Shown: in pieces, positions 15,304 to 39,199 of the stretch
Numbering within the stretch: the first letter of the stretch is position 1
Layout: the number at the start of each line of letters is the position of its first letter
NCBI GenBank assembly: GCA_017405945.1
Contig: JAFQZL010000055.1
Coordinates: 62,001-126,000, forward strand
DNA from: Acidaminococcaceae bacterium
GTDB taxonomy: Bacteria; Bacillota; Negativicutes; Acidaminococcales; Acidaminococcaceae
Length of the DNA stretch: 64,000 nucleotides
Direction: 5' to 3'
Made by a program: the position numbers and the translations under genes
Notes under the pieces: model-generated
Seen by the model: only the letters and a program-made list of their open reading frames with translations
Database searches by the model: none
Told to the model about the DNA's origin: nothing

Positions 15304-15412
15304 ATGCGTTTTTCCATCAGCAATGCACTACTCTATCTGCATATTTTTCTGATAACACAGGAGGATTTTTGCATATATCATATATAATGTATTATCTTTG
15401 TTTAATTATATA

Positions 15413-15421: not shown

Positions 15422-15504
15422 ATTTTGCAAAGGTATTAGGATTATTATAAGATTTGGAATAACAAATAGATTTTCATGTAGATTTTAAGGGTTACAGGTG
15501 TTTG

Positions 15505-16692: not shown

Positions 16693-16721
16693 TTTATTTG
16701 GTATGCGTAGGAGAAAAGCTA

Positions 16722-17654: not shown

Positions 17655-17696
17655 GATTAATTATTAAATTTGTTTTTTAGATTGGAGGTAAAAGGT

Positions 17697-18737: not shown

Positions 18738-19141
18738 ACGAGGAAAAAATGTTCTATGACTATGCTGATGGACAGGCTGTGGTGATTAATTATCAGACCG
18801 GTATGTATTACGGAATGAACTTGCTGGGTTCTGCCATTTTGGACCGTATCATAGCCGGTAAGGATGTTGAGGAGATTATAAAAGCTGTAAAAAAGCTGCC
18901 TCAATGCCCGTCTGATATAGCAGAGCGTGTTCATAGTTTTGTTAAAGAATTGAAGGAAAAAGAAATTATTATTGATGGACCTGCTGTTTCTGGCGGTGCA
19001 GAACCGTTGCCAAATGAAGTAACTGAAGATGGTTTTGAGTTAAAATTGGACATGTTTGCGGAGATGGCGGATCTTCTTCTGGCTGATCCGGTGCATGATG
19101 TTGATATGCAAGCAGGGTGGCCTAAACTGAAAGACAGGTAA
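18725..19141 (+). CDS. PqqD-like peptide-binding protein with C-terminal extension
   Basis: A 138-residue protein. The first 85-90 residues match the PqqD fold pattern (ADGQAVVINYQTGMYYGMN, then LGSAILDRI). PqqD proteins are RiPP recognition elements that hold a leader peptide for modifying enzymes. Roughly 45 extra residues follow, acidic and ending DPVHDVDMQAGWPKLKDR, which is unusual for a bare PqqD. AAAGGAGG precedes the ATG at 18725. It overlaps the kinase-like gene, so the two likely work together. Whether the tail is a fused substrate, a partner-binding tail or a spacer is not known. Confidence 0.75.
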   Translation: MYKLNEEKMFYDYADGQAVVINYQTGMYYGMNLLGSAILDRIIAGKDVEEIIKAVKKLPQCPSDIAERVHSFVKELKEKEIIIDGPAVSGGAEPLPNEVTEDGFELKLDMFAEMADLLLADPVHDVDMQAGWPKLKDR

Positions 19142-19170
19142 TTGTTTTTATTGTTTATAGGGTAGATATT

Positions 19171-19869
19171 ATGGAACCTTTGATTTCTGTAGTCGTAGTA
19201 ACTTATAATCGAGCCCGGTATCTTAAAGAAGCTTTAGACAGTATACTAAGACAGACATTCAAAAATTATGAAATCATTCTGGTAGATGACGGCTCGGTGG
19301 ATAACACGAAAGAAATAGTTGAGCAATACGAAGGAATTCGTTATATTTATCAGGAACATGGCGGTATTTCCAAAGCGCGAAATACAGCCGTTAAAGCTGC
19401 TAAGGGAAAGTGGATTGCTACCCTTGATTCCGATGACCTGTGGAAGAAAGAAAAATTGCAGAAGCAGGTGGACTATTTAGAGGCACATCCTGAATGTCGT
19501 ATTGTGTATACGGCGTTTTGTAACTTTGCCGATGTTTCAGAAGATATACTTAATGAGCGGCAAGCAAAACTATTGCAGTCAGCGGGCAGGTCTTATCTGC
19601 CGAGTGCGTTAATAGATGCCAGGCTGTTTGATGAAATTGGTCTGTATGATGAAACGATTGAATGGGGCGAAGACATTGAATGGATATTTCGCAGTAGATT
19701 TTTTAAGATTGACATCGGGCATTGCATAGATGAAGTCCTTTATTTACGCAGAGTCCATGGTTCGAATATCTCTATTACCACAAAAGAAATCAGTAATTTA
19801 GGATTTTGGAAAATGGCAAGTGATGCTTACAGAAAAATAAAAAGGGACGGAAAACAATTAAAAAGATAA
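19171..19869 (+). CDS. Glycosyltransferase family 2
   Basis: A 232-residue, compact GT2 enzyme, essentially the catalytic GT-A domain with no extension. It has ISVVVVTYNRARYLKEALDS, a VDDGSVDNT strand, ISKARNTA, and the DSDD metal site (86-89). The predicted catalytic-base region EWGEDIEW follows. It lies 29 bases after the PqqD-like gene on the same strand and likely shares its transcript. Specificity is unknown. Confidence 0.85.
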   Translation: MEPLISVVVVTYNRARYLKEALDSILRQTFKNYEIILVDDGSVDNTKEIVEQYEGIRYIYQEHGGISKARNTAVKAAKGKWIATLDSDDLWKKEKLQKQVDYLEAHPECRIVYTAFCNFADVSEDILNERQAKLLQSAGRSYLPSALIDARLFDEIGLYDETIEWGEDIEWIFRSRFFKIDIGHCIDEVLYLRRVHGSNISITTKEISNLGFWKMASDAYRKIKRDGKQLKR

Positions 19870-19932
19870 GTGTGTCATCATACTTTTCATTTAGTAAAAA
19901 ATTAGATGTATAGAGAAAGAGAATGCGATAGT

Positions 19933-20838
19933 ATGAGCCCAAAAATATCGGTTTTGATTCCTGTACATAATACGGAATTATTTCTTGCTAATTGTCTTAA
20001 AAGCGTTATTTCGCAGACATTAAATGAAATAGAAATTATATGCGTAGAAGACGCATCTGAGGATCATAGTGGACTCGTTTTAAAAAGATATGCTGAAAAA
20101 GACTCGCGGATCAGAATTATCTGGCATAATAAAAATGAAGGTACACATAAAGCCAGAAAGGATGCGGTGTTGGTTGCAAGGGGGAAGTACATCATGTTTT
20201 TAGATAGTGATGATGAACTGTTCCCCAATGCATGCGAGGTAGCATATAATGCCATTGAAAGCAATAATACAGATGCAATTCAGTTTGGTGTTCAAAGTAT
20301 TGACTCCAAAGGAAATTATATAGCTACAAAAAGCTGGTTTATAACAGAATATACTGACAGAATTGACAATAATTGGCTGCATTTATATGATAGAAAACAA
20401 ATTAAATCATGGGAGACGTGGAATAAGATTTATAAAGCAGATCTTTGTAAAAACGCATTTAAACAAATGGATGATGACTATTTGATAATTGCAGAAGATG
20501 TATATTTTTTTTGTGTGTATGGATATTTAGCAAAATCTATTTCCATGATTGAAGATGTGCTTTACAAATACCGTCAGGGTTTTGGAATATGGAGTGGAAT
20601 TCAGGGAAAAATCAGTTTAGAAAAGTATAAGATACTTTTATCACAAAAGAAAGCGTTAGATGCCATTCAACGCTATTATAAAACTAAACCCGATGCAAAA
20701 AAGTTCGAGCCAATCATTCAGCGACGTGTAAAAACACATTTTTTACGATTGTCTCTCTTATGGCTGCATTATGGTTTACAGGATACGGATAAAGCGGAAG
20801 GCTTGCAGCTATTTGCTGAAACATGGGGAAATAAATAA
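19933..20838 (+). CDS. Glycosyltransferase family 2
   Basis: A 301-residue GT2 enzyme with ISVLIPVHNTELFLANCLKS, the variant strand ICVEDASED (E in place of the usual D), and DSDD (91-94) in FLDSDDELFPNACEVAYNAI. The same unusual CVED plus DSDDELFP pattern occurs in the GT2 genes at 51212 and 52631, so the three form a paralogous group. The ATG at 19933 was chosen to give the usual N-terminus; the frame runs nine codons further upstream. Ribosome site is weak. Confidence 0.85.
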   Translation: MSPKISVLIPVHNTELFLANCLKSVISQTLNEIEIICVEDASEDHSGLVLKRYAEKDSRIRIIWHNKNEGTHKARKDAVLVARGKYIMFLDSDDELFPNACEVAYNAIESNNTDAIQFGVQSIDSKGNYIATKSWFITEYTDRIDNNWLHLYDRKQIKSWETWNKIYKADLCKNAFKQMDDDYLIIAEDVYFFCVYGYLAKSISMIEDVLYKYRQGFGIWSGIQGKISLEKYKILLSQKKALDAIQRYYKTKPDAKKFEPIIQRRVKTHFLRLSLLWLHYGLQDTDKAEGLQLFAETWGNK

Positions 20839-20865
20839 TCCTGTAGGGGGACAATAAAGGTTATT

Positions 20866-22020
20866 ATGCAAGTTACATATGATAAGCTCCGGTCAACTGT
20901 ATTAGCGAATCTGGGTATAGACCATACGGTTACAGGCGATTTGCTTCAGTTGTATTTTGCCGAGAGTTTGGCACCGGAGTCACTGGCCTGCTTTTTTTCC
21001 CAATATGATATTGAACTGTTAGAGTTTCAGAATGTATGGCTGTTAAGTAAATTGGCAACTCGTTTACATTATGCCGGTGTTCCTAAAGAAGAATTCCCAC
21101 GTGTCAAAGGTATCGTGAAACGGTTTATGGTGGAAAATGGCCGGCATTTTTGTGTATTGCCCGGCGTATTAGAGGCTTTTAATAGATCAGACGTTGCGGT
21201 GATGCTCCTGAACGGAACTGCCATAAAGGTGTTCTACGAGCCGGCAGAAACACGGTATTACAGTACTATAGACTTTCTGGTGCAAGCAGGAGAGATATAT
21301 AGTGCAGGTCATATTTTAGAAAAACTGGGATTCCGGTTACAGGGTACGTTCTGGGGGCAACATGTTTACCGGAAGAACGATGTGAGCGTTGCGATTCACA
21401 GTGAGTATTTGAAAGCAAATATGTTGACTGGGGACCTGGCAGATATCTGGCAACATTCGTCATCAATAACCTTGCAGGGGAAAAAAGCCTTTGTACCCTG
21501 TACGGAAATGATGTTACTAATTCTTTTGGTACAGGGGCTGGAAGCGTGCTGTTCGTGTATCAGTAATTGTCTGGCAAATAGTTTTGTGAATGAATTTATA
21601 GATAGTAAATTCTTTTTGTCTGATGCTTCTTTGAACTGGGAAAAGTTTATTGATATGGCAAAAAAGAGTCAACTTACATTACATGTGCGTTTGATGCTGG
21701 ATGTTTTAAACCAACTGTATCCGGGAGTGGTTGCGGGCAAAGTGTTGGAGGCCTTACCGTATACTGACAAAGATATTGCTAATGTGCAGAAATTGATAAC
21801 GTATAACTTTGCCAGAAAGAAAGCGACGGAAGCCAGGGATAGGCGCGACCGAATGGAGTATTATTGTAACGGTGTGGCGGCGTTGTGGAACTTAAATTGT
21901 TTCTATGGTAATCGTAGTTCGTTGTTTTCCAACGTCACGGATTTTCCGCAGCTTATTGCCATGTGGAACAACCACAGGGGAATCAAAGGATTGTTATCCA
22001 AAGTGGGAGGATTTAAATAA
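20866..22020 (+). CDS. NTP_transf_5-like protein with degenerate active site
   Basis: A 384-residue protein related in layout to the nucleotidyltransferase at 15505: an N-terminal helical region, then LNGTAIKVFYEP and RYYSTIDFLV. Compared with the first copy, the first catalytic aspartate is replaced (D121 matches T134; D136 is kept) and the later acidic residue is lost (E165 matches A176, while H178 remains). It may therefore have lost transferase activity and serve as a binding or regulatory partner. It sits between two GT2 genes, with a four-base gap to the next. Confidence 0.65.
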   Translation: MQVTYDKLRSTVLANLGIDHTVTGDLLQLYFAESLAPESLACFFSQYDIELLEFQNVWLLSKLATRLHYAGVPKEEFPRVKGIVKRFMVENGRHFCVLPGVLEAFNRSDVAVMLLNGTAIKVFYEPAETRYYSTIDFLVQAGEIYSAGHILEKLGFRLQGTFWGQHVYRKNDVSVAIHSEYLKANMLTGDLADIWQHSSSITLQGKKAFVPCTEMMLLILLVQGLEACCSCISNCLANSFVNEFIDSKFFLSDASLNWEKFIDMAKKSQLTLHVRLMLDVLNQLYPGVVAGKVLEALPYTDKDIANVQKLITYNFARKKATEARDRRDRMEYYCNGVAALWNLNCFYGNRSSLFSNVTDFPQLIAMWNNHRGIKGLLSKVGGFK

Positions 22021-22023
22021 ATA

Positions 22024-22713
22024 ATGAAGTTGTCTGTCATTATCCCTTGCTATAATGCGGGTTCCTATTTATCCCAGGCTGTTTTTTCTATACGAAAACA
22101 GCAGGCGGGTTTTCCTTTGACGGTGGAGATTATTGTAATTGACGATGGTTCTACGGATGGCTGTGTGGAGCAGCTGCAAGGTTCGGATCTCATAATCTTG
22201 CATCAGGATCATCAGGGGGCGTCAGCCGCCCGGAACTATGGCATGAAGGAAGCGAGAGGAGAGTATCTGTTGTTTTTGGATGCGGATGATGTACTGGTTC
22301 CCGATGCGGTTGAATCGCTGTATCATGGACTTGTACAGCAGGAAGGGTCTGCGGTTGCGTTAGGTATGGCAGAAGAGTTTATTTCAGAAGAATTGGATGC
22401 CAAAACAGCAGCCGGGCTGGCAAAAAAGGAAATTCCTTTTAGCGCGTTTCTCTCCGGATGTTGTTTTGGAAAAAAGGAAGCATTGCTGCAGATTGGCTTT
22501 TTTGATACAAGCCTTAAGGGCGGGGAAACGGTTGACTGGCTGGCCCGTTTGCGCAATTCCGATTTACAAACTGTGCAGCTTGATGTGGTAACGGTACGCA
22601 GACGTATTCACTTAACCAATACCGGCAGAGTCTGTGAGCAAGAAGAAATGCAGGCTTATGCTACTATAATAAGAAGGCGTTTATTAGCACAGAGGATGAG
22701 CAGGAAAAAATGA
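22024..22713 (+). CDS. Glycosyltransferase family 2
   Basis: A 229-residue GT2 enzyme, catalytic domain only: LSVIIPCYNAGSYLSQAVFS, VIDDGSTDG, GASAARNYG and the DADD metal site (86-89). Its stop overlaps the start of the ABC exporter by four bases (ATGA), indicating translational coupling; a transferase coupled to an exporter may act on the exported lipid-linked product. Sugar unknown. Confidence 0.85.
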   Translation: MKLSVIIPCYNAGSYLSQAVFSIRKQQAGFPLTVEIIVIDDGSTDGCVEQLQGSDLIILHQDHQGASAARNYGMKEARGEYLLFLDADDVLVPDAVESLYHGLVQQEGSAVALGMAEEFISEELDAKTAAGLAKKEIPFSAFLSGCCFGKKEALLQIGFFDTSLKGGETVDWLARLRNSDLQTVQLDVVTVRRRIHLTNTGRVCEQEEMQAYATIIRRRLLAQRMSRKK

Positions 22714-24470
22714 GCTTTTTAAGCAAGTTTAAATATTTTTTAGGTACGGATCAAAAATTAAAAGTAGTTGGGTTTCTGGTATGTATTGTTCTGGCTGCGG
22801 CTTTGGAACTGCTGAGTCTGTCCCTGATGATTCCGCTTGTCATGGCGTTGTTGGACGCTTCCTTTCTGCAAAAACTGCCGTTTTTGCGGAAATATGAACA
22901 TATACTGAACCAGTGGGACCGGCAGGAACTGATTATTGTCTTTTTGCTGGCTTTTTTCTTGGTTATATTGATAAAGAATCTTTTTGTTTTTGTAACCAAA
23001 ATCTACCGCAGGTCCTTTATTGTTACCAGTAATTATCGCAGTTCTTCGAAATTGTACAATACCTACCTTCATTGTGATTATGAAGATGTGTTGATGCGGA
23101 ATTCTAATGATATCATCCGTAATATTGTATATGTCAGCGACCATTCCTATATTCTTCTGGAAGCGTTACTGGAATTGCTGGGAGAATTGTTCATCGTTGT
23201 TTTCATGCTGGGGTTTTTACTGTTCATCAATTGGCGTGTAACGCTGATTTTATTCTTTTTCCTGAGCGGGCTCCTGATAATTTATTATAAATTCAGCAAT
23301 AAAAAATTGCAGGAAATCGGGCGGGAATCCAATAGTGTGTATCTGTATGCCATGGAGCGGGTGCGGGAATCTATTCTGGCGTTTAAGGAAATCCAGCTGA
23401 TGAACCGGGAATCCGTTTTTTTCAAACGGTACTTGGATAATCATCTGTATAATGTAAAACTGGAAAAAAAGAAAGCATATTATTCTGTGGCCCCTGCCCA
23501 TGTGACAGAAGTCTGCGTGTTTGCTGCCCTTTGTCTGTATATCGGCATCGCCGTATCCATGGATAAGGATCCGGCAAGGCTGGTGGCAGAGTTGTCTGTG
23601 GTATCCCTGGCTGCCTGGCGCATGATTCCTTCTGTAAACCGGATCAATGCAAATGCCAACCGGATCAGTTTATATATGCCATCGTTTAACCAGATTACCG
23701 GTGAGTTTATTCACTATTTAAAATCGGACAATGCAGATGCAAGTTTTGCCAATGTGGAGAAGCTGCCTTTCCAGCATTCTGTTACATTACAGGATATTTG
23801 TTACCGCTATCCGCATACGGAAACGGATATTCTGCAGCATGTGAATTTGCAAGTGAAAAAAGGAGATAAGATTGGTATCATCGGTGTTTCCGGCGGGGGT
23901 AAGACGACATTGGTAGATACTCTGTTAGGCTACCTGAAACCCTATCATGGGAAGGTGCTGGTTGACGGAACCGATATTGCTACCAACCGCAAAGGCTGGA
24001 TGCTGAATATTGGTTACATACCTCAAATGATTTTTTTGCTGGACGGGACCATCCGCAACAATATTTTGCTGGGTTATGAAGAGGGCGACGAGAGTAAGAT
24101 CTGGGAAGCGCTGCGTCTGGCCCAGCTGGATGATTTTGTGAAAGGTTTGCCTAAGGGGTTGGATACGGAGATTGGGGAACGTGGAATTAAACTTTCCGGT
24201 GGGCAGCGACAGCGGATTGGTATTGCCCGGGCTCTTTACAATGATTCCCAACTTCTTGTCTTTGACGAAGCCACCTCTGCCCTGGATAAAGAAACGGAAG
24301 CAGAGCTGATGAAAGCGATTAATACGCTGGATAAAGATAAAACGATTATTATTATTTCACATAATATAAATACACTGCAGAATTGCCACAGGATTTACAG
24401 TGTGAAGGATAAGGGGCTGGTGGAAAAGTCTTATAATCAGGGTGGAAATTATGGCCGGACAAATGAATAA
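22710..24470 (+). CDS. ABC exporter, fused membrane and ATPase domains (PglK/McjD/MsbA-like)
   Basis: A 586-residue half-transporter. Residues 1-310 are the six-helix membrane domain; residues about 350-580 are the ATPase, with Walker A GVSGGGKTT (near 392), signature LSGGQRQ (near 495) and Walker B LLVFDEATSALD (near 514). It would work as a homodimer. Relatives flip lipid-linked oligosaccharides (PglK), lipid A (MsbA) or export lasso peptides (McjD). Given both glycosyltransferases and a PqqD/kinase pair in the same operon, either role is possible. Two fragments of a similar gene survive in the scar at 27749-27860. Confidence 0.88.
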   Translation: MSFLSKFKYFLGTDQKLKVVGFLVCIVLAAALELLSLSLMIPLVMALLDASFLQKLPFLRKYEHILNQWDRQELIIVFLLAFFLVILIKNLFVFVTKIYRRSFIVTSNYRSSSKLYNTYLHCDYEDVLMRNSNDIIRNIVYVSDHSYILLEALLELLGELFIVVFMLGFLLFINWRVTLILFFFLSGLLIIYYKFSNKKLQEIGRESNSVYLYAMERVRESILAFKEIQLMNRESVFFKRYLDNHLYNVKLEKKKAYYSVAPAHVTEVCVFAALCLYIGIAVSMDKDPARLVAELSVVSLAAWRMIPSVNRINANANRISLYMPSFNQITGEFIHYLKSDNADASFANVEKLPFQHSVTLQDICYRYPHTETDILQHVNLQVKKGDKIGIIGVSGGGKTTLVDTLLGYLKPYHGKVLVDGTDIATNRKGWMLNIGYIPQMIFLLDGTIRNNILLGYEEGDESKIWEALRLAQLDDFVKGLPKGLDTEIGERGIKLSGGQRQRIGIARALYNDSQLLVFDEATSALDKETEAELMKAINTLDKDKTIIIISHNINTLQNCHRIYSVKDKGLVEKSYNQGGNYGRTNE

Positions 24471-25443
24471 AACACCGACAGTATCTGTTATTGTTCCCGT
24501 ATATCATGTTGAAAAAGTACTCAGACGATGTTTGGACAGTCTTCTCAGGCAGACATTTTCCGATTATGAAATCATACTGGTCAATGATGGCGGAAATGAA
24601 ACGGAAACTGCAATCTGCGAAGAATATGCTGCAAAGCATCCGCTCATTCAATATCATTATCAGGAGAATCAGGGTGCAAGTGTTGCAAGAAACACAGGTT
24701 TGTCCATGGCACGTGGCAGCTGGATCATGTTTGTTGACAGTGACGACTGGGTAGATGAAAATTTTGTTTTAAAGGCCTTCGCTGCTGTAAATAATAATAA
24801 AGCGCAAATGGCTGTTTTTGATTTGGTTTATACAATTGGCGACAGTCGAAATGGGAAAAAACACTGTTCGCTTCTGGAAAAAGGAGTGTATCCTGCGGTA
24901 ACTATTCTTAAGGGTTGTATTGATGGAAGTATAGCATGTTATGTTTGGAATAAGATTTATAAAAGAGAACTATGGGAGGGTATTCTGTTCCCGGCGGGCG
25001 AGATTTGGGAAGATGTTGCCGTGCTTCACGAGGTCATTGACCGAGCAGATAAAATAGCTATATTGCATGATGTGCTTTGTTATATTTCTAAGAGAGAAGG
25101 CAGTGCTACAGACGTTGCGTTTCGGACGGGTGATTGTCATAAGTGGTCGTATATTCAAAGAAAAAAACGTTATCAGTATATTAAAAATTATCATGCGGAA
25201 TTGCTTGATGTTGTGAATAACGATATAGCATCAGCTGCTGTGCGATATGCCGGCTTTCTTGCCAAGAATGAAGATAAACTGCATAATATATATGATATTT
25301 CAAAATGGCTGAGGACTCAAAAAATACAGTTAAATAATGGGCGAATGAAAAGAAGAATTTCTTTTTTTATTCTTTTGCACTTCCCCAAAGAGTTTTTTTA
25401 TTCTGTAAAAATCCTCTTGACCTTAGGCTTGGTTCACAGGTGA
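24451..25443 (+). CDS. Glycosyltransferase family 2
   Basis: A 330-residue GT2 enzyme with VSVIVPVYHVEKVLRRCLDS, GASVARNTG and DSDD (96-99). GGTGG lies just before the ATG at 24451, which is inside the last codons of the ABC exporter gene, so the two are coupled. It is the last intact gene of the left cluster; the phosphohexomutase remnant begins 26 bases after its stop. Confidence 0.87.
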   Translation: MAGQMNKTPTVSVIVPVYHVEKVLRRCLDSLLRQTFSDYEIILVNDGGNETETAICEEYAAKHPLIQYHYQENQGASVARNTGLSMARGSWIMFVDSDDWVDENFVLKAFAAVNNNKAQMAVFDLVYTIGDSRNGKKHCSLLEKGVYPAVTILKGCIDGSIACYVWNKIYKRELWEGILFPAGEIWEDVAVLHEVIDRADKIAILHDVLCYISKREGSATDVAFRTGDCHKWSYIQRKKRYQYIKNYHAELLDVVNNDIASAAVRYAGFLAKNEDKLHNIYDISKWLRTQKIQLNNGRMKRRISFFILLHFPKEFFYSVKILLTLGLVHR

Positions 25444-25468
25444 GTACGGATAATGAAGAAAGCTGCCC

Positions 25469-25549
25469 GTAAGCGCGCCGGATAAGGCGGCGGCGGAAGT
25501 CATAGAAAAGAAGATTGTGGAAGATTTGAAGAAACGGATAAATGGATAA
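25469..25549 (+). pseudogene. Second copy of phosphohexomutase 3' end (81 bases)
   Basis: These bases align without gaps to 15160-15240, the last 26 codons and stop of the intact gene. Seven of 81 bases differ: six synonymous (third positions plus one CTG/TTG) and one Ile-to-Val. A partly similar hairpin follows near 25590. The fragment has no start. The synonymous bias implies it diverged while part of a working gene in another lineage. Confidence 0.92.
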
Positions 25550-25628
25550 TAGTTATAACAATATAATTAGTTGTAAGACCTCCGGTATGCTGCCGGATGA
25601 TGTTTTGCCACGCAGTATTTCGTGAATG

Positions 25629-25665
25629 AATTCCCTGCATTTTTTGAAAATGCAGGGAATTTTTT
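25629..25665 (+). terminator. Intrinsic terminator after phosphohexomutase remnant
   Basis: AATTCCCTGCATTTT pairs with AAAATGCAGGGAATT, followed by TTTT. It insulates the ATPase gene from left-cluster transcription. Confidence 0.85.
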
Positions 25666-25683
25666 GCACTTTAATGCAAAAAC

Positions 25684-25712
25684 TTTATTTTTTTTAAAAT
25701 TTATGCTATAGT
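25684..25712 (+). promoter_or_regulatory. Promoter candidate of DUF4143 ATPase gene
   Basis: TGCTATAGT (extended -10, ending 25712) with a weak TTTATT 17 bases upstream lies just before the ATPase ATG and after a terminator. Confidence 0.4.
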
Positions 25713-25733
25713 GAATGCGGGGGGATAAATGCA

Positions 25734-27056
25734 ATGATCAGTACAAATACGCTTATAAACCGGAAAAACTACTTAGATAAACTAATCGGTTTTCGCGATA
25801 CGGAACCGGTAAAAATCATTACAGGGATACGCCGTTGCGGAAAATCCAGCCTGTTGAAGCTGATGGTGCAGTATTTTCATAAAACCGGCGTTGCTGCAGA
25901 ACAGATTATAGAAATAAATTTTGAGTACTACGCGTTTAAAGATATGAACGCGGATGCATTGTACCGTTATGTGAAAGAACGTGTCATACCGGGAAAACGG
26001 ATGTATATTTTCCTGGATGAACTGCAGAGGGTCCCGGCATGGGAAGATGCCGTAAATGCGTTTCGCGCGGAACTGGATTGTGATATTTATGTTACCGGCT
26101 CCAATGCGTATCTCCTGTCCTCGGAATATTCTACCTATCTTTCCGGCCGGTGTGTGGAAATTAAGATGCTGCCTCTGTCTTTCCGGGAATTTTTGCTGTT
26201 TAACGGATTTCAGATTAAAGAAAGAGCCGGTGTGGCCGGCATAATAAAAAAACGGATCTGTACTGCGGATGGCGAACCGTATGAGTTGCGGGAAGTGTTT
26301 GACCTGTATATGCGGTATGGCGGTATGCCCGGTATGGCGGAAACCGGTCTTGTGCAGGAAAAAGCGATGGCTCTTTTGGACAGCATTTATTCCACGGTTG
26401 TTGTAAGGGACATTCTGGAACGGGAAAAGCGGCGGGGGCAGAAGCAGATTACAGATGCAGTACTGCTGCGCAAAATTATCTTGTTTCTGGCGGATAATAT
26501 CGGTAATAATGTTTCGGTTACGACTATGGGAAATATCCTGGTAAACGAAGGGCTGTTACAGATGCAGGGCCGCAAGGGGCGGCCCAGTGCGCATACGGTT
26601 CAGGCTTATGTGAATGCGCTTCTGGAGAGTTACTTTTTTTATGAGATAAAACGCTTTGATGTTAAAGGAAAGCAGTATTTGCGTACTCTGGGCAAATATT
26701 ATGTGGCAGATACAGGGCTGCGTAACTATCTTCTGGGATTTCGCAACAGGGACAGCGAGCATGTGCTGGAAAATATCGTTTATTTTGAATTGCTGCGCAG
26801 AGGGTATGATGTGGCCATCGGCAAGGTAGACGCGGAAGAGGTGGATTTTATTGCTGCCAAAGCAGATTCCAGAAAATATATTCAGGTGACGGAGTCCATG
26901 CTGGGCCCGGATGTGAAAGAACGGGAACTGGGACCGTTGCGAAATATACGGGATAATTACGAAAAGATGGTTTTGTCTTTGGAGCCGGGGCTGGACGCAT
27001 CGTATGACGGGATTAAGTCGCTGCATCTTCTGGACTGGCTGCTTGAGGGGGGATAA
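25734..27056 (+). CDS. AAA_14 / DUF4143 ATPase
   Basis: A 440-residue protein of the widespread AAA_14-DUF4143 group. Walker A is GIRRCGKSS (31-39) and Walker B is MYIFLDELQ with D95-E96. The sensor-like VTGSNAYLLSSE and STYLSGRCVEIKMLPLSF follow, and the C-terminal DUF4143 half ends with a nuclease-like ENIVYFELLRRGYDV...VDFIA pattern. The cellular role of this family is unsettled. It has its own promoter candidate and terminators on both sides, and lies exactly between remnants of the phosphohexomutase and RpiR genes, so it behaves as a separate cargo gene. Its stop codon touches the RpiR remnant. Confidence 0.88.
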   Translation: MISTNTLINRKNYLDKLIGFRDTEPVKIITGIRRCGKSSLLKLMVQYFHKTGVAAEQIIEINFEYYAFKDMNADALYRYVKERVIPGKRMYIFLDELQRVPAWEDAVNAFRAELDCDIYVTGSNAYLLSSEYSTYLSGRCVEIKMLPLSFREFLLFNGFQIKERAGVAGIIKKRICTADGEPYELREVFDLYMRYGGMPGMAETGLVQEKAMALLDSIYSTVVVRDILEREKRRGQKQITDAVLLRKIILFLADNIGNNVSVTTMGNILVNEGLLQMQGRKGRPSAHTVQAYVNALLESYFFYEIKRFDVKGKQYLRTLGKYYVADTGLRNYLLGFRNRDSEHVLENIVYFELLRRGYDVAIGKVDAEEVDFIAAKADSRKYIQVTESMLGPDVKERELGPLRNIRDNYEKMVLSLEPGLDASYDGIKSLHLLDWLLEGG

Positions 27057-27111
27057 TTATATTGATAATATGAAGCAGGTACGCAAAGCGATTGCAAGTC
27101 AGAAGATGTAA
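27056..27111 (+). pseudogene. Second copy of RpiR-family regulator 3' end (56 bases)
   Basis: Aligns without gaps to 61208-61263, the end of the intact regulator gene. Seven bases differ: three synonymous changes, Thr to Ser (two bases), Leu to Met, and TGA to TAA. The fragment begins at the last base of the ATPase stop codon, so the junction is exact. As with the phosphohexomutase copy, the changes look like those of a working allele from a relative. Confidence 0.9.
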
Positions 27112-27147: not shown

Positions 27148-27149
27148 TT

Positions 27150-27308
27150 ATGGTCAATAGTTTAGCACATACCAAATGGGTGTGTAAATATCACATTGTG
27201 TTTACGCCGAAGTACAGAAGAAAAATTATCTATAACCAGTTGCGTGTGGATATTAGGACGATCCTAAAGGATTTATGTAAATGGAAAGGCGTAGAAATCA
27301 CAGAAGGG
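27150..27308 (+). mobile_element. Truncated IS200/IS605-type transposase (tnpA fragment)
   Basis: The first 53 residues match the N-terminus of IS200-type Y1 transposases: LAHTKWVCKYHIVFTPKYRR, then RVDIRTILKDLCKWKGVEI. The sequence breaks off before the HUH metal motif and the catalytic tyrosine, and runs in frame into a glycosyltransferase fragment. The element is dead. It records a past insertion or a recombination point at the cluster junction. Confidence 0.88.
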
Positions 27309-27446
27309 AACCAGAGTTTATCAAATATTGAAATTATTCTGGTAGATGATGCCTCGCCCGACAGGTGCGGAATAATTTGCGAAGAATATGCTGCTAAAGA
27401 TGCCCGGTTCATTTTTGAAAAAAGTGAGTTGTTGACCAAACACTAA
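27309..27446 (+). pseudogene. GT2 fragment fused to transposase remnant
   Basis: Reads NQSLSNIEIILVDDASPDRC followed by an EEYAAKDARF segment, equal to about residues 27-60 of a GT2 enzyme such as the one at 786-1745, then runs into unrelated sequence and a stop. Both the N-terminal strand and the DxD site are missing. Confidence 0.85.
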
Positions 27447-27480
27447 TTATACGGAAACAATAAAACGGGAATAAAATTAT

Positions 27481-27510
27481 TGACAAAAATGACAAAAATG
27501 ACAAAAATAG
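27481..27510 (+). repeat. Short tandem repeat of (TGACAAAAA)-type units
   Basis: Three consecutive nine- to ten-base units containing GACAAAAAT. Together with a downstream TTGTCAA they can form a weak hairpin. Possibly slippage, or part of the control region of the right cluster; a TATAAT box lies at about 27570. Confidence 0.6.
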
Positions 27511-27624
27511 ACTTAAAATTGTCAATGCCAAATGAATGGTTATAGTGCCAATCCACTGAAAATTATAGTATAATAACTACATTAAGATAATATATTAATA
27601 GACAATAAGCTTATAAGTGGGAAA

Positions 27625-27860
27625 ATGTTAAAAAACAAAGAAACAGCTGTACCGGTATTTTCTGTTGTTGTGCCGGTCTACAATGCGGAACGATATCTGT
27701 ATAAAGCATTACAGAGCATTCTGGACCAGGACTTTCCGGACTTCGAACGGATTCCCCTCGTGATGGCAGTGTTGGACGCTTCCCTTCAGCAGAAGCCGCC
27801 TCTGTGTTGGTTAAAGAAACGGAAGCAGAGCTGATGAAAGCGATTGAAATGGGAAGATAA
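27625..27860 (+). pseudogene. Composite remnant: GT2 N-terminus joined to two ABC exporter fragments
   Basis: Residues from 27625 to about 27747 are a GT2 N-terminus (FSVVVPVYNAERYLYKALQS). At about 27749 the frame switches to sequence matching residues near 41-55 of the exporter at 22710 (IPLVMAVLDAS). From about 27801, in another frame, it matches the exporter segment after Walker B (KETEAELMKAI). An internal deletion therefore removed most of an exporter gene and left its two ends side by side. It ends about 15 bases before the first right-cluster gene. Confidence 0.85.
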
Positions 27861-27874
27861 GGGAAAGCGCATTG

Positions 27875-29032
27875 ATGAAAAAGATACTGCAGATTTCAAA
27901 TTATTTATATCCCAATATTGGCGGAATTGAGCAGGTTACCCGTGATATTGCCCATGTTCTTTCCGCAAATGGGAACTATGCGCAGAAAATCATATGCTTC
28001 AATGAAACGGCAAGAGACGGCGATTACGTCTGCCATCGAAACGAAACCGTACATGACAGCGTAGATGGAATTGAAGTCATACGCTGCGGCTGTATTACCA
28101 AAAAGTTTTCCCAGTCGATTTCGCTAACGTTTCCGGGGGAACTAAAAAGGCTGATGGAAGAGTTTGACCCGGACGTGGTGGTTTTCCATTATCCCAACCC
28201 TTTTCAGGCCCAGTTCCTTCAGAAATATTTTAAAAAGAAATTCAAGTTTGTCCTGTACTGGCATTTGGATATTGTTAAGCAGAAACGGTTGGGCAGGTTA
28301 TTTTACGGGCAGAGCATCCGGCTTCTGGAACGGGCTGACATCGTTCTTGCGGCGAGCCCTTTATATATTGACGGAAGTCCGTTTTTAAGCAGGTATAGGA
28401 ATAAATGCCGGGTACTATCGTATTGCATCAGCGGGAGCCGCATGGCGGTAACCGGTGAAATGGAGCGCAAAGCCGGACAAATCAGATCGGATAATAAAAA
28501 TAAAATAATCTGTTTCGGTATAGGAAGGCATGTTTCCTATAAAGGGTTTAACTATTTAGTGGACGCGTCCAAATACCTGGATGACCGCTTTGTGATTTTT
28601 ATTGGCGGCAGTGGGGAATTGACAGAAGAACTTCAGGCGCAGGCAGCCGGCGATAAGAAAATTGTTTTTTTAGGCAGGATTAGTGATGCGGATCTTATCG
28701 CATTCTATATTGCCATGGATATTCTCTGCTTCCCGTCCATTGCCAAAAATGAAGGTTTTGGCATTGCGTTGGCTGAGGGCATGTTTTTCGGGAAGCCGGC
28801 GGTAACTTTTCATATTCCCGGTTCCGGCGTCAATTATGTAAACCTGCAAGACGTAACCGGCCTGGAAGTGCCTAACGGAGATTGTAAAGCCTATGCGGAT
28901 GCCATAAAGCGGCTGGCGGATCATGCGGACTTGCGGAACAAAATGGGATTGGCGGCTAAGCGCAGAGTTGAAAAACTGTTTATGATGAAGTCGTTTAAAG
29001 AGAATATTCTTGCCATGATTCAGGATTTATAA
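27875..29032 (+). CDS. Glycosyltransferase family 4
   Basis: A 385-residue GT-B enzyme. The N-terminal acceptor lobe has NYLYPNIGGIEQVTRDIAHV, and the C-terminal donor lobe has CFGIGRHVSYKGFNYLVDA and NEGFGIALAEGMFFGKPAV (near residue 290) with the EX7E-like glutamates of GT4. The next genes make GDP-mannose, so a mannosyltransferase is a reasonable guess. The ATG at 27875 follows an in-frame TTG. It begins the right-hand operon immediately after the composite remnant. Confidence 0.87.
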   Translation: MKKILQISNYLYPNIGGIEQVTRDIAHVLSANGNYAQKIICFNETARDGDYVCHRNETVHDSVDGIEVIRCGCITKKFSQSISLTFPGELKRLMEEFDPDVVVFHYPNPFQAQFLQKYFKKKFKFVLYWHLDIVKQKRLGRLFYGQSIRLLERADIVLAASPLYIDGSPFLSRYRNKCRVLSYCISGSRMAVTGEMERKAGQIRSDNKNKIICFGIGRHVSYKGFNYLVDASKYLDDRFVIFIGGSGELTEELQAQAAGDKKIVFLGRISDADLIAFYIAMDILCFPSIAKNEGFGIALAEGMFFGKPAVTFHIPGSGVNYVNLQDVTGLEVPNGDCKAYADAIKRLADHADLRNKMGLAAKRRVEKLFMMKSFKENILAMIQDL

Positions 29033-29049
29033 TACAGGGAGGGCTTACC

Positions 29050-30354
29050 TTGCATATTATTTTACTGTCCGGCGGCAGCGGAAAACGGCTGTGGCCCATT
29101 TCGAATGATGTAAGAAGCAAGCAGTTCATTAAGCTTTTTAAAAAAGACAACGGTGACTATGAGTCCATGGTGCAGCGGGTGTACAGGCAGATCCGTACAG
29201 TAAGTCCCCGGACCGGTATTACAATTGCTACCGGCAGTTCCCAGGTGAGCAGTATACGGAACCAACTGGGAGAAAATGTTTCTGTGTGCGTGGAACCAGA
29301 AAGACGTGACACCTGCCCTGCGATTTTACTGGCAGCGGCCTACTTACAGGATGAACTGCATGTTGACAGGGAGGAAACGGTGGTAGTATGCCCTGTGGAT
29401 CCCTATGTAGACAACAGTTATTATGAAGCGGTTTCCGCGCTGGATACCTGTGTACAGGAAGGAACGGCCAAACTGACTCTGATGGGGATTGAGCCCACGG
29501 TTCCCAGCAGTAAATACGGATACATTATTCCGGAATCGGCTGATAAAGTTGCGAATGTAAAAGCGTTTAAGGAAAAGCCCGGCGTGGAGACGGCAAAGGA
29601 GTACATCAGGACTGGCGCCCTGTGGAATGCCGGCGTATTTGCCTTTAAGCTGGGGTACGTAATCGATATGGCTCATAAAATGGCTGATTTTACGGACTAT
29701 AAAGATTTGTTCACCAAATATGAAACCCTGGAAAAAATCAGCTTTGACTATGCCGTGGTAGAAAAGGAACCATCCATCCAGGTGATGCGGTATGCGGGCG
29801 AATGGAAGGATGTCGGTACATGGAACATGATGTCCGAGGTCATGAGCGAACACACGAAAGGCAACGTCACGCTGGATGAAACCTGCGTGAATACCCATGT
29901 TATCAACGAACTGGAGATTCCTGTGCTTTGCATGGGGTGTAAAAATATGGTGGTGGCGGCTTCCGGAGACGGTATTTTTGTAGCCGATAAAGAACGCAGC
30001 GGGTCCATGAAGAGTTATGTGGAAAAGATTAGTACGGATATCCATTATGCGGAAAAGAGCTGGGGTACCTACAGTGTAATTGATGCGCAGCAAGGCGCGG
30101 TTACCATAAAAGCAAATCTTTATGCAGGACGTAAGATGAGTTACCACCGGCATGAGTTCCGGGATGAAGTATGGACCGTACTGAGCGGTGAAGGCATTGT
30201 GACCGTAGACGGCATGGAGCAGACCGTGCGTCCCGGTGACGTGGTGACCATTGCGGCAGGCTGCAAGCATACGATTGAGGCCAAAACGGATATGCAGCTG
30301 ATTGAAATACAGGTAGGCAAAGTAATCGATGTAGCGGACAAGGCGGTATTCTGA
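29050..30354 (+). CDS. manC: Mannose-1-phosphate guanylyltransferase with C-terminal cupin
   Basis: A 434-residue enzyme making GDP-mannose from mannose 1-phosphate and GTP. The pyrophosphorylase signature LLSGGSGKRLWPIS is at residues 5-18, with SKQF and SKYGYI motifs following. The C-terminal cupin (about 335-430; YHRHEFRDEVWTVLSGEG) resembles the type II phosphomannose isomerase domain, though a separate isomerase gene follows. Translation starts at TTG (29050) after GGGAGGG. Its stop shares a base with the start of manA, so the two are coupled. Confidence 0.93.
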   Translation: MHIILLSGGSGKRLWPISNDVRSKQFIKLFKKDNGDYESMVQRVYRQIRTVSPRTGITIATGSSQVSSIRNQLGENVSVCVEPERRDTCPAILLAAAYLQDELHVDREETVVVCPVDPYVDNSYYEAVSALDTCVQEGTAKLTLMGIEPTVPSSKYGYIIPESADKVANVKAFKEKPGVETAKEYIRTGALWNAGVFAFKLGYVIDMAHKMADFTDYKDLFTKYETLEKISFDYAVVEKEPSIQVMRYAGEWKDVGTWNMMSEVMSEHTKGNVTLDETCVNTHVINELEIPVLCMGCKNMVVAASGDGIFVADKERSGSMKSYVEKISTDIHYAEKSWGTYSVIDAQQGAVTIKANLYAGRKMSYHRHEFRDEVWTVLSGEGIVTVDGMEQTVRPGDVVTIAAGCKHTIEAKTDMQLIEIQVGKVIDVADKAVF

Positions 30355-31319
30355 TGGAGCCCATGTTGCTGAAGCCTGTGGGGAAAGATAACCTCTGGGG
30401 CGGAACCCGGCTGAAAACTGAATTTTATAAAGACATACCCATTACCCCGCTGGCGGAAACCTGGGAGTGCAGCGCCCATCCGGAAGGTCCCAGTACTATT
30501 GTGAACGGCGGGTTTGCAGGGCGTACGTTAACCGAAGTGCTGAAGCTGCATCCGGAATTTTTGGGAACCAAAGTCGATAAACGGTACGGTCTTCCGATTC
30601 TGGTAAAGTTTATTGACGCAAAGCAAAGTTTGTCCATACAGGTCCATCCGGAAGACGCCTATGCCAGAAAGCATGAACAGGATTTCGGAAAAACCGAGAT
30701 GTGGTATGTACTGGATGCAGGTCCGAATGCGTTTCTGATCCAGGGCTTTGCCCATGACGTAACTGAAACCATGCTTCGAAAATCCGTGGCGGACGGGGAT
30801 CTGGACAAACATCTGAACAAGGTGAGAATCCATAAAGGAGACGTGTTCTTTAACCCGGCGGGGACCATCCACGGCATCGGGGCGGGCTGCCTGCTTGTGG
30901 AAATCCAGGAGAGTTCCAATGTAACGTACCGGGTTTATGATTATGACCGGATCGATAAGAACGGTCATAAACGGGAGCTGCATGTTGATAAGGCCCTGCA
31001 GATTATGGATATGAAAGTCAGGCCGCATTACGAACAGAGAGCAAGGCTGGTACGTTACTATCCGGGGTGCAGCCGGGAAATCCTCTGCCGCTGCCGGTAT
31101 TTTGAAACGGAGCGCTTACGGGTGACCCGGGGGGCGGCGTTTACGGTGCAGCCTACTTCTTTTCAGATATTGCTGTGCGTAAACGGAGAGGGCGGTCTGG
31201 CCACCGATGAATCTCAGTGGTCGTTACGTTTTAAAAAAGGAGACTGCATTTTTATTCCTGCCGGCCTGGGACGGTGCTTTGTGACAGGGGAGTGCGAACT
31301 GTTGAAGGTTCGGGTGTGA
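30354..31319 (+). CDS. manA: Mannose-6-phosphate isomerase, class I
   Basis: A 321-residue cupin-type isomerase turning fructose 6-phosphate into mannose 6-phosphate. Zinc ligands appear in SIQVHPED (Q96, H98), E115 and the later AGTIHGIG histidine. The N-terminal KDNLWGGTRL is typical of the short Bacillota form. It overlaps manC by one base. With manC and the phosphohexomutase it provides GDP-mannose for the dehydratase gene downstream. Confidence 0.93.
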   Translation: MEPMLLKPVGKDNLWGGTRLKTEFYKDIPITPLAETWECSAHPEGPSTIVNGGFAGRTLTEVLKLHPEFLGTKVDKRYGLPILVKFIDAKQSLSIQVHPEDAYARKHEQDFGKTEMWYVLDAGPNAFLIQGFAHDVTETMLRKSVADGDLDKHLNKVRIHKGDVFFNPAGTIHGIGAGCLLVEIQESSNVTYRVYDYDRIDKNGHKRELHVDKALQIMDMKVRPHYEQRARLVRYYPGCSREILCRCRYFETERLRVTRGAAFTVQPTSFQILLCVNGEGGLATDESQWSLRFKKGDCIFIPAGLGRCFVTGECELLKVRV

Positions 31320-31395
31320 TTAGGGAAAGAACGGGAAATTGCATTCCCTGTTGGTAAGGAAACCGTTATACTGGCATTTTATGGGGGCTGAAAAA

Positions 31396-32475
31396 TTGCG
31401 GATTGCGTTGGATGACCGGGCCGTAAAGTTGTCCGGCATAGGCATCTATACCAAAAATCTATATGACTTTTATACAAGCCTGGGCCACTCCGTTTTTTTA
31501 TATGACGACAAGTTGGTTGTTTCCAGATCTGCGTTTGTTTTTAAATACATAAATTTTATGAAAAGGCTCATAAAAGAAAACAGCGATTTGGGCAATTGGC
31601 TGCAGGGAAATGGAATCGAATTGTACCACGTACCTAAGAATACAGGGGTGCCGTTGTTTTCGCCTGTTCCTGTTGTAGTTACAATACACGACGTAATTCC
31701 CCATGTGTTTCCGCAACAGTATCTTAAGAATATTCTGGAACGGATTTACTATGAAACGGCTATACGGATATCCATAAAAAGATCCCGGAAAATAATTACG
31801 ATTTCCGAGTTTTCCAAACAGGCGCTGATTCAGCACTACGGAGTAAAACCGGAAAAAATAGCGGTCACGTTGTTAGCCTATAACAGGGCATTCCGGAAAA
31901 TTGAGGAGGCTGCAGTATTGAAACCGGTTCGGGAAAAATATAATCTGAATGGCCGATATCTGCTTGCCATAGGCGGCAGTGAATACCGGAAAAACATGCA
32001 GCGGCTGATCCGTGTGTACCAGAGACATTTTTCCGATGAATATAAGTTGGTTGTGATTGGCGGTAAGTGGCGGGATGTGGATTTGTCCGGCAGATACGCG
32101 TCAGATATAAACATTCGCTTCCTGACCAATATTCCGGAAGAGGATTTAATAGCCATTTATAATATGGCAACGGTATTTGTTTTCCCCTCCTTTTATGAAG
32201 GATTTGGCATTCCGGTGCTGGAAGGAATGGCCTGCGGGGTTCCGGTCGTTACGTCGAAGGTGTCTTCCATGCCGGAGGTTGGCGGGGATGCGGCAGTCTA
32301 CTTTGATCCGTACGATGAAACCGATATGGCGGCAAAAATAGAAAGCGTGCTGACAGATGAGCGGTTGCGGAAGGAAATGATTGCCAAAGGACTGCAAAAG
32401 GTGAAAGAATATTCCTGGGAAAAGTGTGCGGAAGAAACCTTGCAGATTTACAGGGAAGTGCTTGGAAATGAATAA
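31396..32475 (+). CDS. Glycosyltransferase family 4
   Basis: A 359-residue GT4 enzyme. The N-terminus RIALDDRAVKLSGIGIYTKN is the usual glycine-rich start of mannosyl/rhamnosyl transferases. The donor lobe has GGSEYRKNMQRLI and PSFYEGFGIPVLEGMACGVP. A TTG at 31396, eight bases after GGGGG, gives the conventional N-terminus; the in-frame ATG at 31381 is an alternative. Lying between GDP-mannose and GDP-rhamnose genes, it probably uses one of these donors. Confidence 0.87.
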   Translation: MRIALDDRAVKLSGIGIYTKNLYDFYTSLGHSVFLYDDKLVVSRSAFVFKYINFMKRLIKENSDLGNWLQGNGIELYHVPKNTGVPLFSPVPVVVTIHDVIPHVFPQQYLKNILERIYYETAIRISIKRSRKIITISEFSKQALIQHYGVKPEKIAVTLLAYNRAFRKIEEAAVLKPVREKYNLNGRYLLAIGGSEYRKNMQRLIRVYQRHFSDEYKLVVIGGKWRDVDLSGRYASDINIRFLTNIPEEDLIAIYNMATVFVFPSFYEGFGIPVLEGMACGVPVVTSKVSSMPEVGGDAAVYFDPYDETDMAAKIESVLTDERLRKEMIAKGLQKVKEYSWEKCAEETLQIYREVLGNE

Positions 32476-32563
32476 AAAACCATTGCTCATGGCATCATAT
32501 AATATTGCAGTTCTTAAACAAAACACAGGTTTTAGATAATGCCTCTTAAAGGAGAGATAAAAG

Positions 32564-33601
32564 ATGAAAAAAGTTGCATTGGTTACCGGCATCACCGGAC
32601 AGGACGGTTCCTATTTAGCGGAACTGTTATTGGAAAAAGGCTATGAGGTACACGGTATCGTACGCAGGGCTTCCGTGGATACCAATGAACGCATCCGACA
32701 CATTTTAGATAAAATAACGCTTTATGACGGGGATTTATCCGATTCTGCCAGTATTATCCGGGTTGTAAAGGAAACGCAGCCGGATGAGATTTACAACCTG
32801 GCGGCCCAGAGCCACGTAGGTACCAGTTTCACAGCTGCCGAGTATACCGGCGATGTGGATGCCCTTGGCGTGCTGCGCATCCTGGAAGCGGTCCGGATGC
32901 TGGGACTGGCAAAGAAAACCCGTATCTACCAGGCCTCCACTTCCGAATTGTACGGCAAAGTAGAAGAGTGCCCGCAAAATGAAAATACCCACTTCCATCC
33001 CTACAGTCCCTATGCGGTGGCCAAACAATACGGCTATTGGATAACCAGAGAATATCGCGAGGCCTACGGCATGTTTGCCTGCAACGGTATTTTATTTAAT
33101 CATGAGTCGGAACGGCGCGGCGAAAATTTTGTAACCCGTAAAATTACCCTGGCTGCCGGACGCATTGCCTGCGGGCTCCAGGATCATCTGGAACTGGGCA
33201 ATCTGGATTCCCTCCGGGACTGGGGCTATGCCAAAGATTATGTGGAGTGCATGTGGCTGATACTGCAGCAGGACGAACCGGACGACTTTGTTATTGCCAC
33301 CGGTGTACAGCATACGGTTCGTGAGTTTACCGAACTGGCCTTTGCCAACGACGGCATCGAGCTGGAATGGAAAGGCGAAGGCCTGGATGAAAAGGGCTAT
33401 GACAAAAAAACCGGCAAGATGCTGGTATGCGTCAACCCCCAATGGTTCCGCCCTACGGATGTGGTAAACCTGTGCGGGGACCCCACCAAAGCCCGCACCA
33501 AACTGGGATGGAATCCCCAGAAAACAAGTTACGGGGAACTGTGCCGCATTATGGCGGAGCATGACCTGCAAAAAGCGAGGAAAGAGGCCGGAATGGCATG
33601 A
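32564..33601 (+). CDS. gmd: GDP-mannose 4,6-dehydratase
   Basis: A 345-residue short-chain dehydrogenase/reductase that converts GDP-D-mannose to GDP-4-keto-6-deoxy-D-mannose. It has the NADP-binding [11 protein letters not shown] (8-18), the STSELYG active-site segment (125-131), and Y150-x3-K154, followed by [17 protein letters not shown], a Gmd hallmark. GGAGAG precedes the ATG. Its product is the branch point for the rmd gene directly downstream (overlap of four bases) and the fcl gene at 50191. Confidence 0.95.
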
Positions 33602-34512
33602 AAAAGGTATTGATTTTTGGGATGGGAGGTTTTGCAGGCGCCTATCTGGCGCAGGAATTGCAAACCCATGGCTATGAGGTGCACGGCAGCGACCTGCATG
33701 CGAAGTTAATAGGAAACGTTTCTGTGATTGCGGCTGATTTGCTGGATGCGGAAGCAGTGGAAAAGATTGTATGCGGAGTCAAACCGGATGCCATTATCAA
33801 TCTGGCAGCTGTCAGCAGTGTGGGGCAGTCCTGGGGCATGCCCCAGACCACCATACAGGTCAATGTGGTTGGTTCCCTGAATATTCTGGAAGCGGCGCGG
33901 AAGCTGGATAAAAAACCGAAAGTGATGTTTATCGGTTCCAGTGAGGAATATGTTGGAAGCGACGAGCCTATGAATGAGAATACACCGCTTGATGCCAACA
34001 ATCCCTATGGGATTTCCAAGATTGTCCAGGAGCGCTTTGCAAAACTGTACAGGGAGCAGTACGGATTAAAGATATATTGCGTACGCCCTTTCAACCATAC
34101 CGGTGTGGGGCAGCGGGACAGTTTTGTATTGCCCAGTTTCTGCAAACAGGTGGCGGAGATTGAAAGATCCGGCAGGCCGGGTGTTATTAAAGTTGGTAAT
34201 TTAGCGGTCAGGCGGGACTTCAGCCATGTAAAGGATATCGTGCGTGCTTACCGGATGATTCTGGAAAGCGATGACGATACGCAAATTTATAATGTTGGCA
34301 GCGGCAAAGCCTACGGGCTGGATGAACTGCTGAACTATATCATAGCGTTGAGCCGTCAGCAGATAACCGTTGCAATGGAGCCGTCCCGTGTACGGCCGAC
34401 AGATACACCGGTTATCTGCTGCGATTACAGCAAAATAGAGAAGGAATTAGGATGGAAACCGGAATATACAGTGTTTGACGCATTAGAAGAATTATATGAA
34501 AGTTACTTGTAA
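33598..34512 (+). CDS. rmd: GDP-6-deoxy-D-lyxo-4-hexulose reductase (GDP-D-rhamnose forming)
   Basis: A 304-residue reductase with the Rossmann loop GMGGFAG (8-14), the Y137-x3-K141 pair and the Rmd-type signature [20 protein letters not shown]. This group reduces the Gmd product to GDP-D-rhamnose. The four-base overlap with gmd (ATGA) shows coupling. It is distinct from the fcl gene further on, which makes GDP-L-fucose from the same intermediate. GDP-6-deoxy-talose formation is a less likely alternative. Confidence 0.87.
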
Positions 34513-34600
34513 TATTCTTTGCCAGACAGTATGGCGCCGGCTCTGCGGGCTGACGGCACACATATGCAATGCCTGAATTCTTTACAGTTGGTGAGAAACA

Positions 34601-35374: not shown

Positions 35375-35375
35375 T

Positions 35376-39178: not shown

Positions 39179-39199
39179 TTATTAGCAGGGATTGAATAA

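What the first reader, a model, noticed from the sequence alone, without database searches (positions are those of the whole stretch)
25469..27111. Allelic end-copies of the phosphohexomutase and RpiR genes inside the cluster
The last 81 bases of the phosphohexomutase gene and the last 56 bases of the RpiR gene each recur, in that order, around an ATPase gene in the middle of the glycan region. The intact genes bound the whole region (15240 and 60406). Six of seven changes in the first copy are synonymous and one is Ile to Val. The second has three synonymous changes, two conservative substitutions and a stop-codon swap. This is what alleles from a related strain look like, not a decayed local duplication. 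It suggests that the pgm-rpiR interval repeatedly swaps cassettes by recombination in flanking genes, leaving allele ends behind.
Basis: partly seen in the sequence, partly recalled or inferred. Interest (0 to 1): 0.82.

Follow-up and report, generated by a model that had tools for sequence, protein, structure and literature searches.

The report
Fossil gene ends inside glycan cluster
In a rumen bacterium, a 45-kb surface-sugar gene cluster has been built around the remains of an older, short version of the same chromosomal spot (phosphohexomutase gene, ATPase gene, RpiR regulator gene), a version still whole in a sister species; it is a clear fossil of recombination, of a kind already known from other bacteria.

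Summary
The last 86 bp of pgm (15155-15240) recur at 25464-25549 (90.7%), and the last 56 bp of rpiR (61208-61263) at 27056-27111 (87.5%), both on the same strand around an intact AAA_14/DUF4143 ATPase gene. The host is a Succiniclasticum species. The predicted short version exists: genome G011 (RUG14664) carries pgm-ATPase-rpiR-mutY, colinear with the inner copy at 93% over 1.6 kb. The rpiR remnant is that arrangement minus 838 bp, deleted between two ATTA tetramers. The fragments are no closer to this genome's own intact genes than to other species' genes. They are therefore a separate allele, not a decayed local copy. The outer rpiR keeps the promoter of ATPase-less loci, so two versions of one locus are stacked in one chromosome. 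Remnants of an IS200 transposase, GT2 genes and the cassette-A ABC gene follow. Repeated cassette swapping is not shown: six other species have nothing between pgm and rpiR, and one has only the ATPase. The ATPase is a PDC-S01 defence candidate that changes position in this genus. Known kind of event; moderate interest.

The parts
12218..13459 (+). malic enzyme; allele of a different lineage from that expected (groups with G004)
   Evidence: Pfam; tree with own+G004 support 0.998, own-G001 83.5% although G001-G009 is 92.5%
13507..15240 (+). intact phosphohexomutase (pgm), outer allele, followed by its own terminator to about 15300
   Evidence: Pfam; orthologs; terminator homologous to G011 up to 15292
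15300..25463 (+). cassette A: two NTP_transf_5 proteins, HprK-like kinase, PqqD-like protein, GT2 glycosyltransferases, PglK/MsbA-type ABC exporter
   Evidence: no orthologous ABC exporter in 13 congeners (best 28-41%)
25464..25549 (+). pgm' : last 86 bp of a second pgm allele, truncated on its 5' side
25550..25733 (+). intergenic of the short locus (terminator, 55-bp promoter-like stretch TTTTTTGCA..TGCAAAAAC)
   Evidence: 87% to G011 343-525; alignment
25734..27056 (+). intact AAA_14/DUF4143 ATPase, PADLOC candidate PDC-S01
   Evidence: 93.4% nt to G011 C25
27056..27132 (+). rpiR' : last 56 bp of a second rpiR allele plus its terminator; joined to the ATPase end at ATTA by an 838-bp deletion relative to G011
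   Evidence: 25469-27059 = G011 262-1853, 27056-27132 = G011 2691-2768
27149..27310 (+). 5' part of an IS200-type tnpA (Y1_Tnp), truncated
   Evidence: Pfam; 85% to multicopy elements in G001, G011, G013
27311..27848 (+). remnants of two GT2 genes and of a diverged copy of the cassette-A ABC exporter
   Evidence: tblastn (GT2 27312-27440 and 27670-27753; ABC 27751-27801 and 27792-27848, 76-79% aa); DNA 90.7% at 27792-27845 vs 24267-24320
27872..60204 (+). cassette B: ABC-dependent O-antigen type cluster (GDP-mannose pyrophosphorylase/PMI, GDP-mannose dehydratases, Wzm/Wzt, UDP-Glc dehydrogenase, many glycosyltransferases)
60327..61263 (+). intact rpiR with the promoter region of ATPase-less loci
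   Evidence: 60328-61264 continuous with G012, 60327-61261 with G007; G011 lacks this promoter stretch
61244..63142 (+). third insert: DUF6020 membrane protein between rpiR and mutY (likely start ATG 61322)
   Evidence: Pfam; in G011, G012 and G007 mutY follows rpiR within about 130 bp
63164..64000 (+). mutY, start of the conserved right flank
   Evidence: own outside G011+G001, support 1.0

Best explanation
The segment 25464-27132 is the remains of an older, short version of this locus, pgm-(PDC-S01 ATPase)-rpiR-terminator, as still found whole in the sister species G011. Cassettes A (left) and B (right) now stand on either side of it. They are bounded on the outside by a second, ATPase-less set of alleles: pgm with its terminator, and the rpiR promoter with rpiR. 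Shown: two versions of one locus coexist in order and on one strand, and the inner rpiR was lost by a deletion between ATTA repeats. Inferred: incoming DNA carrying glycan genes next to pgm and to rpiR paired with the resident locus by homology in those genes on one side and was joined without homology on the other (86 bp before the inner pgm stop on the left; in the decayed IS200/GT2/ABC stretch on the right). It was thus added to the locus rather than substituted. The redundant inner rpiR and other pieces then decayed by small deletions. Which of the two versions was resident and which came in is not settled.
For: Colinear 93% match of 25469-27059 to G011 262-1853, and of 27056-27132 to G011 2691-2768, with a 4-base overlap ATTA at the deletion. 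Inner and outer copies both retain homology beyond their stop codons. The outer rpiR keeps the ATPase-less promoter. pgm', ATPase, rpiR', outer pgm and outer rpiR are all in the same order and strand, which an ectopic insertion would not predict. Substitutions in the fragments are mostly synonymous (6 of 7 in pgm', P about 0.002). Malic enzyme is allelically displaced, and pgm/rpiR/mutY are more divergent and more star-like among own, G011, G001 and G009 than the neighbouring abc1, abc2, sbp and gnd genes, as expected around a recombining locus. Remnants of an ABC gene allelic to cassette A lie right of the ATPase.
Against: Only one genome per species could be compared, so the immediate donor and recipient were not seen. 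pgm' and rpiR' are too short to place firmly in trees (supports 0.73-0.85). Outer pgm and rpiR also group with G011 (0.66-0.80), so no distant donor is needed for them. The one-sided joins are inferred from anatomy only. The genome is a 63-contig assembly, and an assembly join was not testable without reads.
Confidence: 0.6

Rival explanations
1. Integrative element: cassette A (or A plus B) is an island that inserted site-specifically into the 3' end of pgm, carrying a replacement gene end and displacing the native end.
For: Direct repeat of a gene 3' end with synonymous changes and an intact hybrid gene is the classic look of such islands.
Against: No integrase or recombinase among the cassette-A genes. 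Homology of the two copies runs on into the terminator instead of stopping at an att core. It does not explain the second fragment, where the 3' end lies upstream of the intact gene.
Confidence: 0.1
2. Ectopic import of the ATPase: the PDC-S01 gene moved into an existing pgm-A-B-rpiR cluster together with scraps of its previous flanks (pgm' and rpiR') from a G011-like donor.
For: PDC-S01 genes change position in this genus: G011's gnd-linked copy recurs at 90% nt over 1,415 bp in another context in G012, and gnd has an empty site in G001 and an ATPase remnant in the own genome. G011's gnd-linked copy is also flanked by a 62-bp scrap of gnd. PDC-S01 relatives occur on 233 plasmid records.
Against: Landing by chance between pgm and rpiR in the same orientation is unlikely (45 kb of 2.46 Mb, half for orientation). 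The inner ATPase is as divergent from G011 (93.4%) as other shared genes (93-97%), so no recent import is evident.
Confidence: 0.22
3. Assembly artefact: strain variants of a metagenomic assembly were joined.
For: 63 contigs and 2.6% estimated contamination; G011 and the window carry different versions of the locus.
Against: Several independent decay features (internal rpiR deletion at ATTA, truncated tnpA, truncated GT2 and ABC genes) lie around the segment and are hard to get from a k-mer join. Inner sequence differs from G011 by 7%.
Confidence: 0.06

Closest known systems
Remnants and junctions in Salmonella O-antigen gene clusters (e.g. group D2 formed by recombination of groups D1 and E, H-repeat remnant at the junction; wzy remnants; divergence raised in flanking genes), PMC3715488
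   Same: Glycan genes between conserved flanks, remnants of an earlier version and of an IS-like element at the junction, raised divergence in the flanking genes.
   Different: Other phylum and other flanking genes (pgm and rpiR); the fossil is a whole short locus containing a defence-candidate ATPase; no alternative glycan cluster at this site was seen in other species.
Homology-facilitated illegitimate recombination (PMC3240628)
   Same: Predicts one homologous and one non-homologous end, so adds DNA and leaves truncated gene ends.
   Different: Here inferred from anatomy only; competence of Succiniclasticum was not examined.
PDC-S01 candidate defence gene (ATPase fused to a PD-(D/E)XK domain; PMC12988326, PMC13356809)
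   Same: The ATPase at 25734-27056 matches PADLOC PDC-S01 with E 8e-148; it is the most frequent single locus in a rumen survey (PMC13356809).
   Different: No activity shown; the new point is only its changing position at gene ends in Succiniclasticum.

Membership tests
Recombining surface-polysaccharide locus with exchange in flanking genes | conserved flanking genes on both sides | tested here: met
   malic enzyme-pgm and rpiR-mutY conserved in order in G001, G007, G013 and G005, partly also in G009, G011 and G012
Recombining surface-polysaccharide locus with exchange in flanking genes | different clusters at the same site in different strains or species | tested here: not met
   six species empty, one with only the ATPase; strains of the same species not available
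Recombining surface-polysaccharide locus with exchange in flanking genes | raised divergence or foreign alleles in the flanks, falling off outward | tested here: met
   malic 83.5% and mutY 83-84% vs 94.5-97% in abc1, abc2, sbp and gnd against G001/G011
Recombining surface-polysaccharide locus with exchange in flanking genes | remnants of earlier versions at the junctions | tested here: met
   pgm', rpiR', tnpA, GT2 and ABC remnants
Site-specific integrative island at a gene 3' end | integrase gene in the insert | tested here: not met
   none in cassette A
Site-specific integrative island at a gene 3' end | direct repeat of the gene end, host gene restored | tested here: met
   pgm intact, 86-bp repeat
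Site-specific integrative island at a gene 3' end | homology limited to an att core | tested here: not met
   homology of both copies to G011 extends beyond the stop codon into the terminator
PDC-S01 (PADLOC) | profile match over full length | tested here: met
   E 7.9e-148, residues 6-438 of 440
PDC-S01 (PADLOC) | anti-phage activity | not testable with these tools
   needs experiment; literature calls it a candidate (PMC12988326)

The most novel reading that the evidence does not exclude
PDC-S01 ATPase genes are one-gene mobile units that settle at 3' ends of conserved genes, and their gain and loss leaves scraps of the neighbouring gene (pgm' and rpiR' here, gnd' in G011). On this reading a candidate defence gene, not the glycan cluster, opened this spot for later insertions.
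Probability: 0.08. Interest if true: 0.7.

Novelty: new member of a known kind. Interest (0 to 1): 0.4.

Why it matters
The fragment lets one read the history of a surface-glycan locus in a largely unstudied rumen genus: an older, short locus version is preserved between two newer cassettes and can be dated against sister species. It also shows that PDC-S01, reported as the most frequent single defence-candidate locus in a rumen survey (PMC13356809), is gained and lost at fixed gene-end sites (gnd, pgm-rpiR, rpiR-mutY), which makes its mobility testable.

Tried and rejected
Idea that all PDC-S01 genes are flanked by target duplications: 6 of 22 had direct repeats within 900 bp, against about 2 of 127 other genes. 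For L083 and L085, however, the repeats proved to be dispersed intergenic repeats found all over the genus, so only the G011 gnd case is a gene-end scrap; L064 was not resolved. A self-scan of about 0.95 Mb of this genus, chiefly the own genome and G001, found gene-end scraps near an intact gene only at this locus and at gnd in G011, so the feature is rare and not background. Search for orthologs of the cassette-A ABC exporter and cassette-B Wzt in 13 congeners: none of cassette A, only 41-50% for Wzt at other loci. ATPase or Wzt on IMG/VR contigs: none. A bootstrap tree by IQ-TREE timed out and was replaced by FastTree. DUF4143 literature: one irrelevant paper.

Full report
Host and setting. 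The window is contig 49 (62001-126000) of a 2.46-Mb genome. Relatives found by sequence are Succiniclasticum, including S. ruminis DSM 9236 (G001 = L049/L057) and the rumen genome RUG14664 (G011 = L050/L056). Around the finding the conserved order is malic enzyme, pgm, rpiR, mutY; pgm and rpiR orthologs in this form are essentially limited to the genus.

Self-comparison gives the pgm end (86 bp, 90.7%) and the rpiR end (58 bp, 87.9%) at the stated places and in the stated order. By contrast, a 62-bp scrap of gnd beside another ATPase in G011 has only one synonymous change of five, so that one is decaying.

What it is. In six species (G001, G005, G007, G009, G012, G013) pgm and rpiR stand next to each other with only a terminator and a promoter between. 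In G011 an ATPase gene lies between them. The window segment 25469-27059 is colinear with G011 262-1853 at 93%, and 27056-27132 with G011 2691-2768; the two matches overlap by ATTA. So the inner segment is the G011 arrangement from the pgm end through the ATPase, with 838 bp containing most of rpiR deleted between two ATTA tetramers, and the rpiR end plus terminator kept. The outer rpiR has the promoter region of ATPase-less species from 60327 on. Two versions of the same locus therefore coexist in one chromosome.

Alleles. Over the two ends (142 bp) the inner copy differs from the outer at 15 sites, from G011 at 13 and from G001 at 11; the outer differs from G011 at 9. The inner copy is thus not a duplicate of this genome's intact genes, but on so few sites its exact origin cannot be placed (tree supports 0.73-0.85). 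The inner ATPase is 93.4% identical to that of G011, like other shared genes (gnd 94.5%, pepT 93.1%), which fits common descent. The own genome also shares with G011 the scar of a second ATPase insertion after gnd: G011 has the gene, the own genome a 115-bp remnant of it, and G001 an empty site.

Recombination around the locus. The malic enzyme of the window groups with G004 (0.998) and is only 83.5% identical to G001, although G001 and G009 share 92.5%. mutY is 83-84% identical to G011 and G001, whereas the genes just beyond it are 96-97%. pgm is about equally distant (90-91%) among own, G011, G001 and G009, while gnd separates G009 clearly. This is what a recombining region looks like, but it also holds for species without any cassette.

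The cassettes. Cassette A codes for two NTP_transf_5 proteins, an HprK-like kinase, a PqqD-like protein, GT2 transferases and a PglK/MsbA-like exporter. Cassette B is an ABC-transporter (Wzm/Wzt) O-antigen type cluster with GDP-mannose-derived sugars. A third insert, a DUF6020 protein, lies between rpiR and mutY. Right of the inner segment are a truncated IS200 tnpA, GT2 pieces and two pieces of an ABC gene related to that of cassette A: evidence that a diverged version of cassette A once stood on that side too.

How it probably came about. Exchange by two crossovers in flanking genes replaces everything between and leaves no scraps. The anatomy needs addition: homologous pairing on one side and a non-homologous join on the other, known as homology-facilitated illegitimate recombination (PMC3240628), or an equivalent IS-assisted event as proposed for Salmonella group D2 (PMC3715488). 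Redundant genes then decayed by short deletions. Shown are the two coexisting locus versions, the deletion and the remnants; the joins and their order are inferred.

The ATPase. It matches PADLOC PDC-S01 (E 8e-148), an unvalidated single-gene defence candidate (PMC12988326) reported as the most frequent single locus in rumen genomes (PMC13356809). In this genus it occupies different gene ends: pgm-rpiR in G011, rpiR-mutY in G001 (a different subfamily, opposite strand), after mutY in G009, after gnd in G011, and a 90% identical copy of the last in another place in G012, with identity ending close to the gene. A general link between the ATPase and flanking duplications was tested and not upheld, because two of the best cases are dispersed repeats.

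Verdict. Observation confirmed; allele reading and short-version prediction supported; repeated cassette swapping not shown with one genome per species. A clear new example of a known kind of event.

Noticed in passing
L066 about 5789-8782 (G000:C49 about 131789-134782) and L056 9866-11567: After gnd: G011 has a PDC-S01 ATPase plus a 62-bp gnd scrap, the own genome has a 115-bp remnant of the same ATPase, G001 has an empty site; gain and loss of a defence candidate at one site.
   Followed up: partly
L084 2596-4008 vs L056 10016-11430: The same ATPase unit (90% nt over 1,415 bp, gene plus palindromic upstream region) in two unrelated contexts in G012 and G011.
   Followed up: partly
15502-24470: Cassette A combines NTP_transf_5, HprK-like and PqqD-like proteins with glycosyltransferases and an ABC exporter, a mix resembling peptide-modification clusters; no precursor was sought.
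   Followed up: no
45859-50113: Two adjacent proteins of about 700 aa without Pfam match are tandem copies (83% nt identity).
   Followed up: no
12218-13459: Malic enzyme allele belongs to another lineage (with G004), pointing to a recombination breakpoint between it and pgm.
   Followed up: partly
L063 (G004 C151): In G004 the malic enzyme is inverted and lies directly beside rpiR; no pgm was found in that genome.
   Followed up: no
G000:C49:137259-137439 and 154894-155051 and many other places: A dispersed intergenic repeat of about 160 bp found in most Succiniclasticum genomes.
   Followed up: no
6043-8639: Phage-replication-like genes (Phage_rep_org_N, IstB-like ATPase, sigma factor) left of the malic enzyme, beside a Wzz gene.
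   Followed up: no
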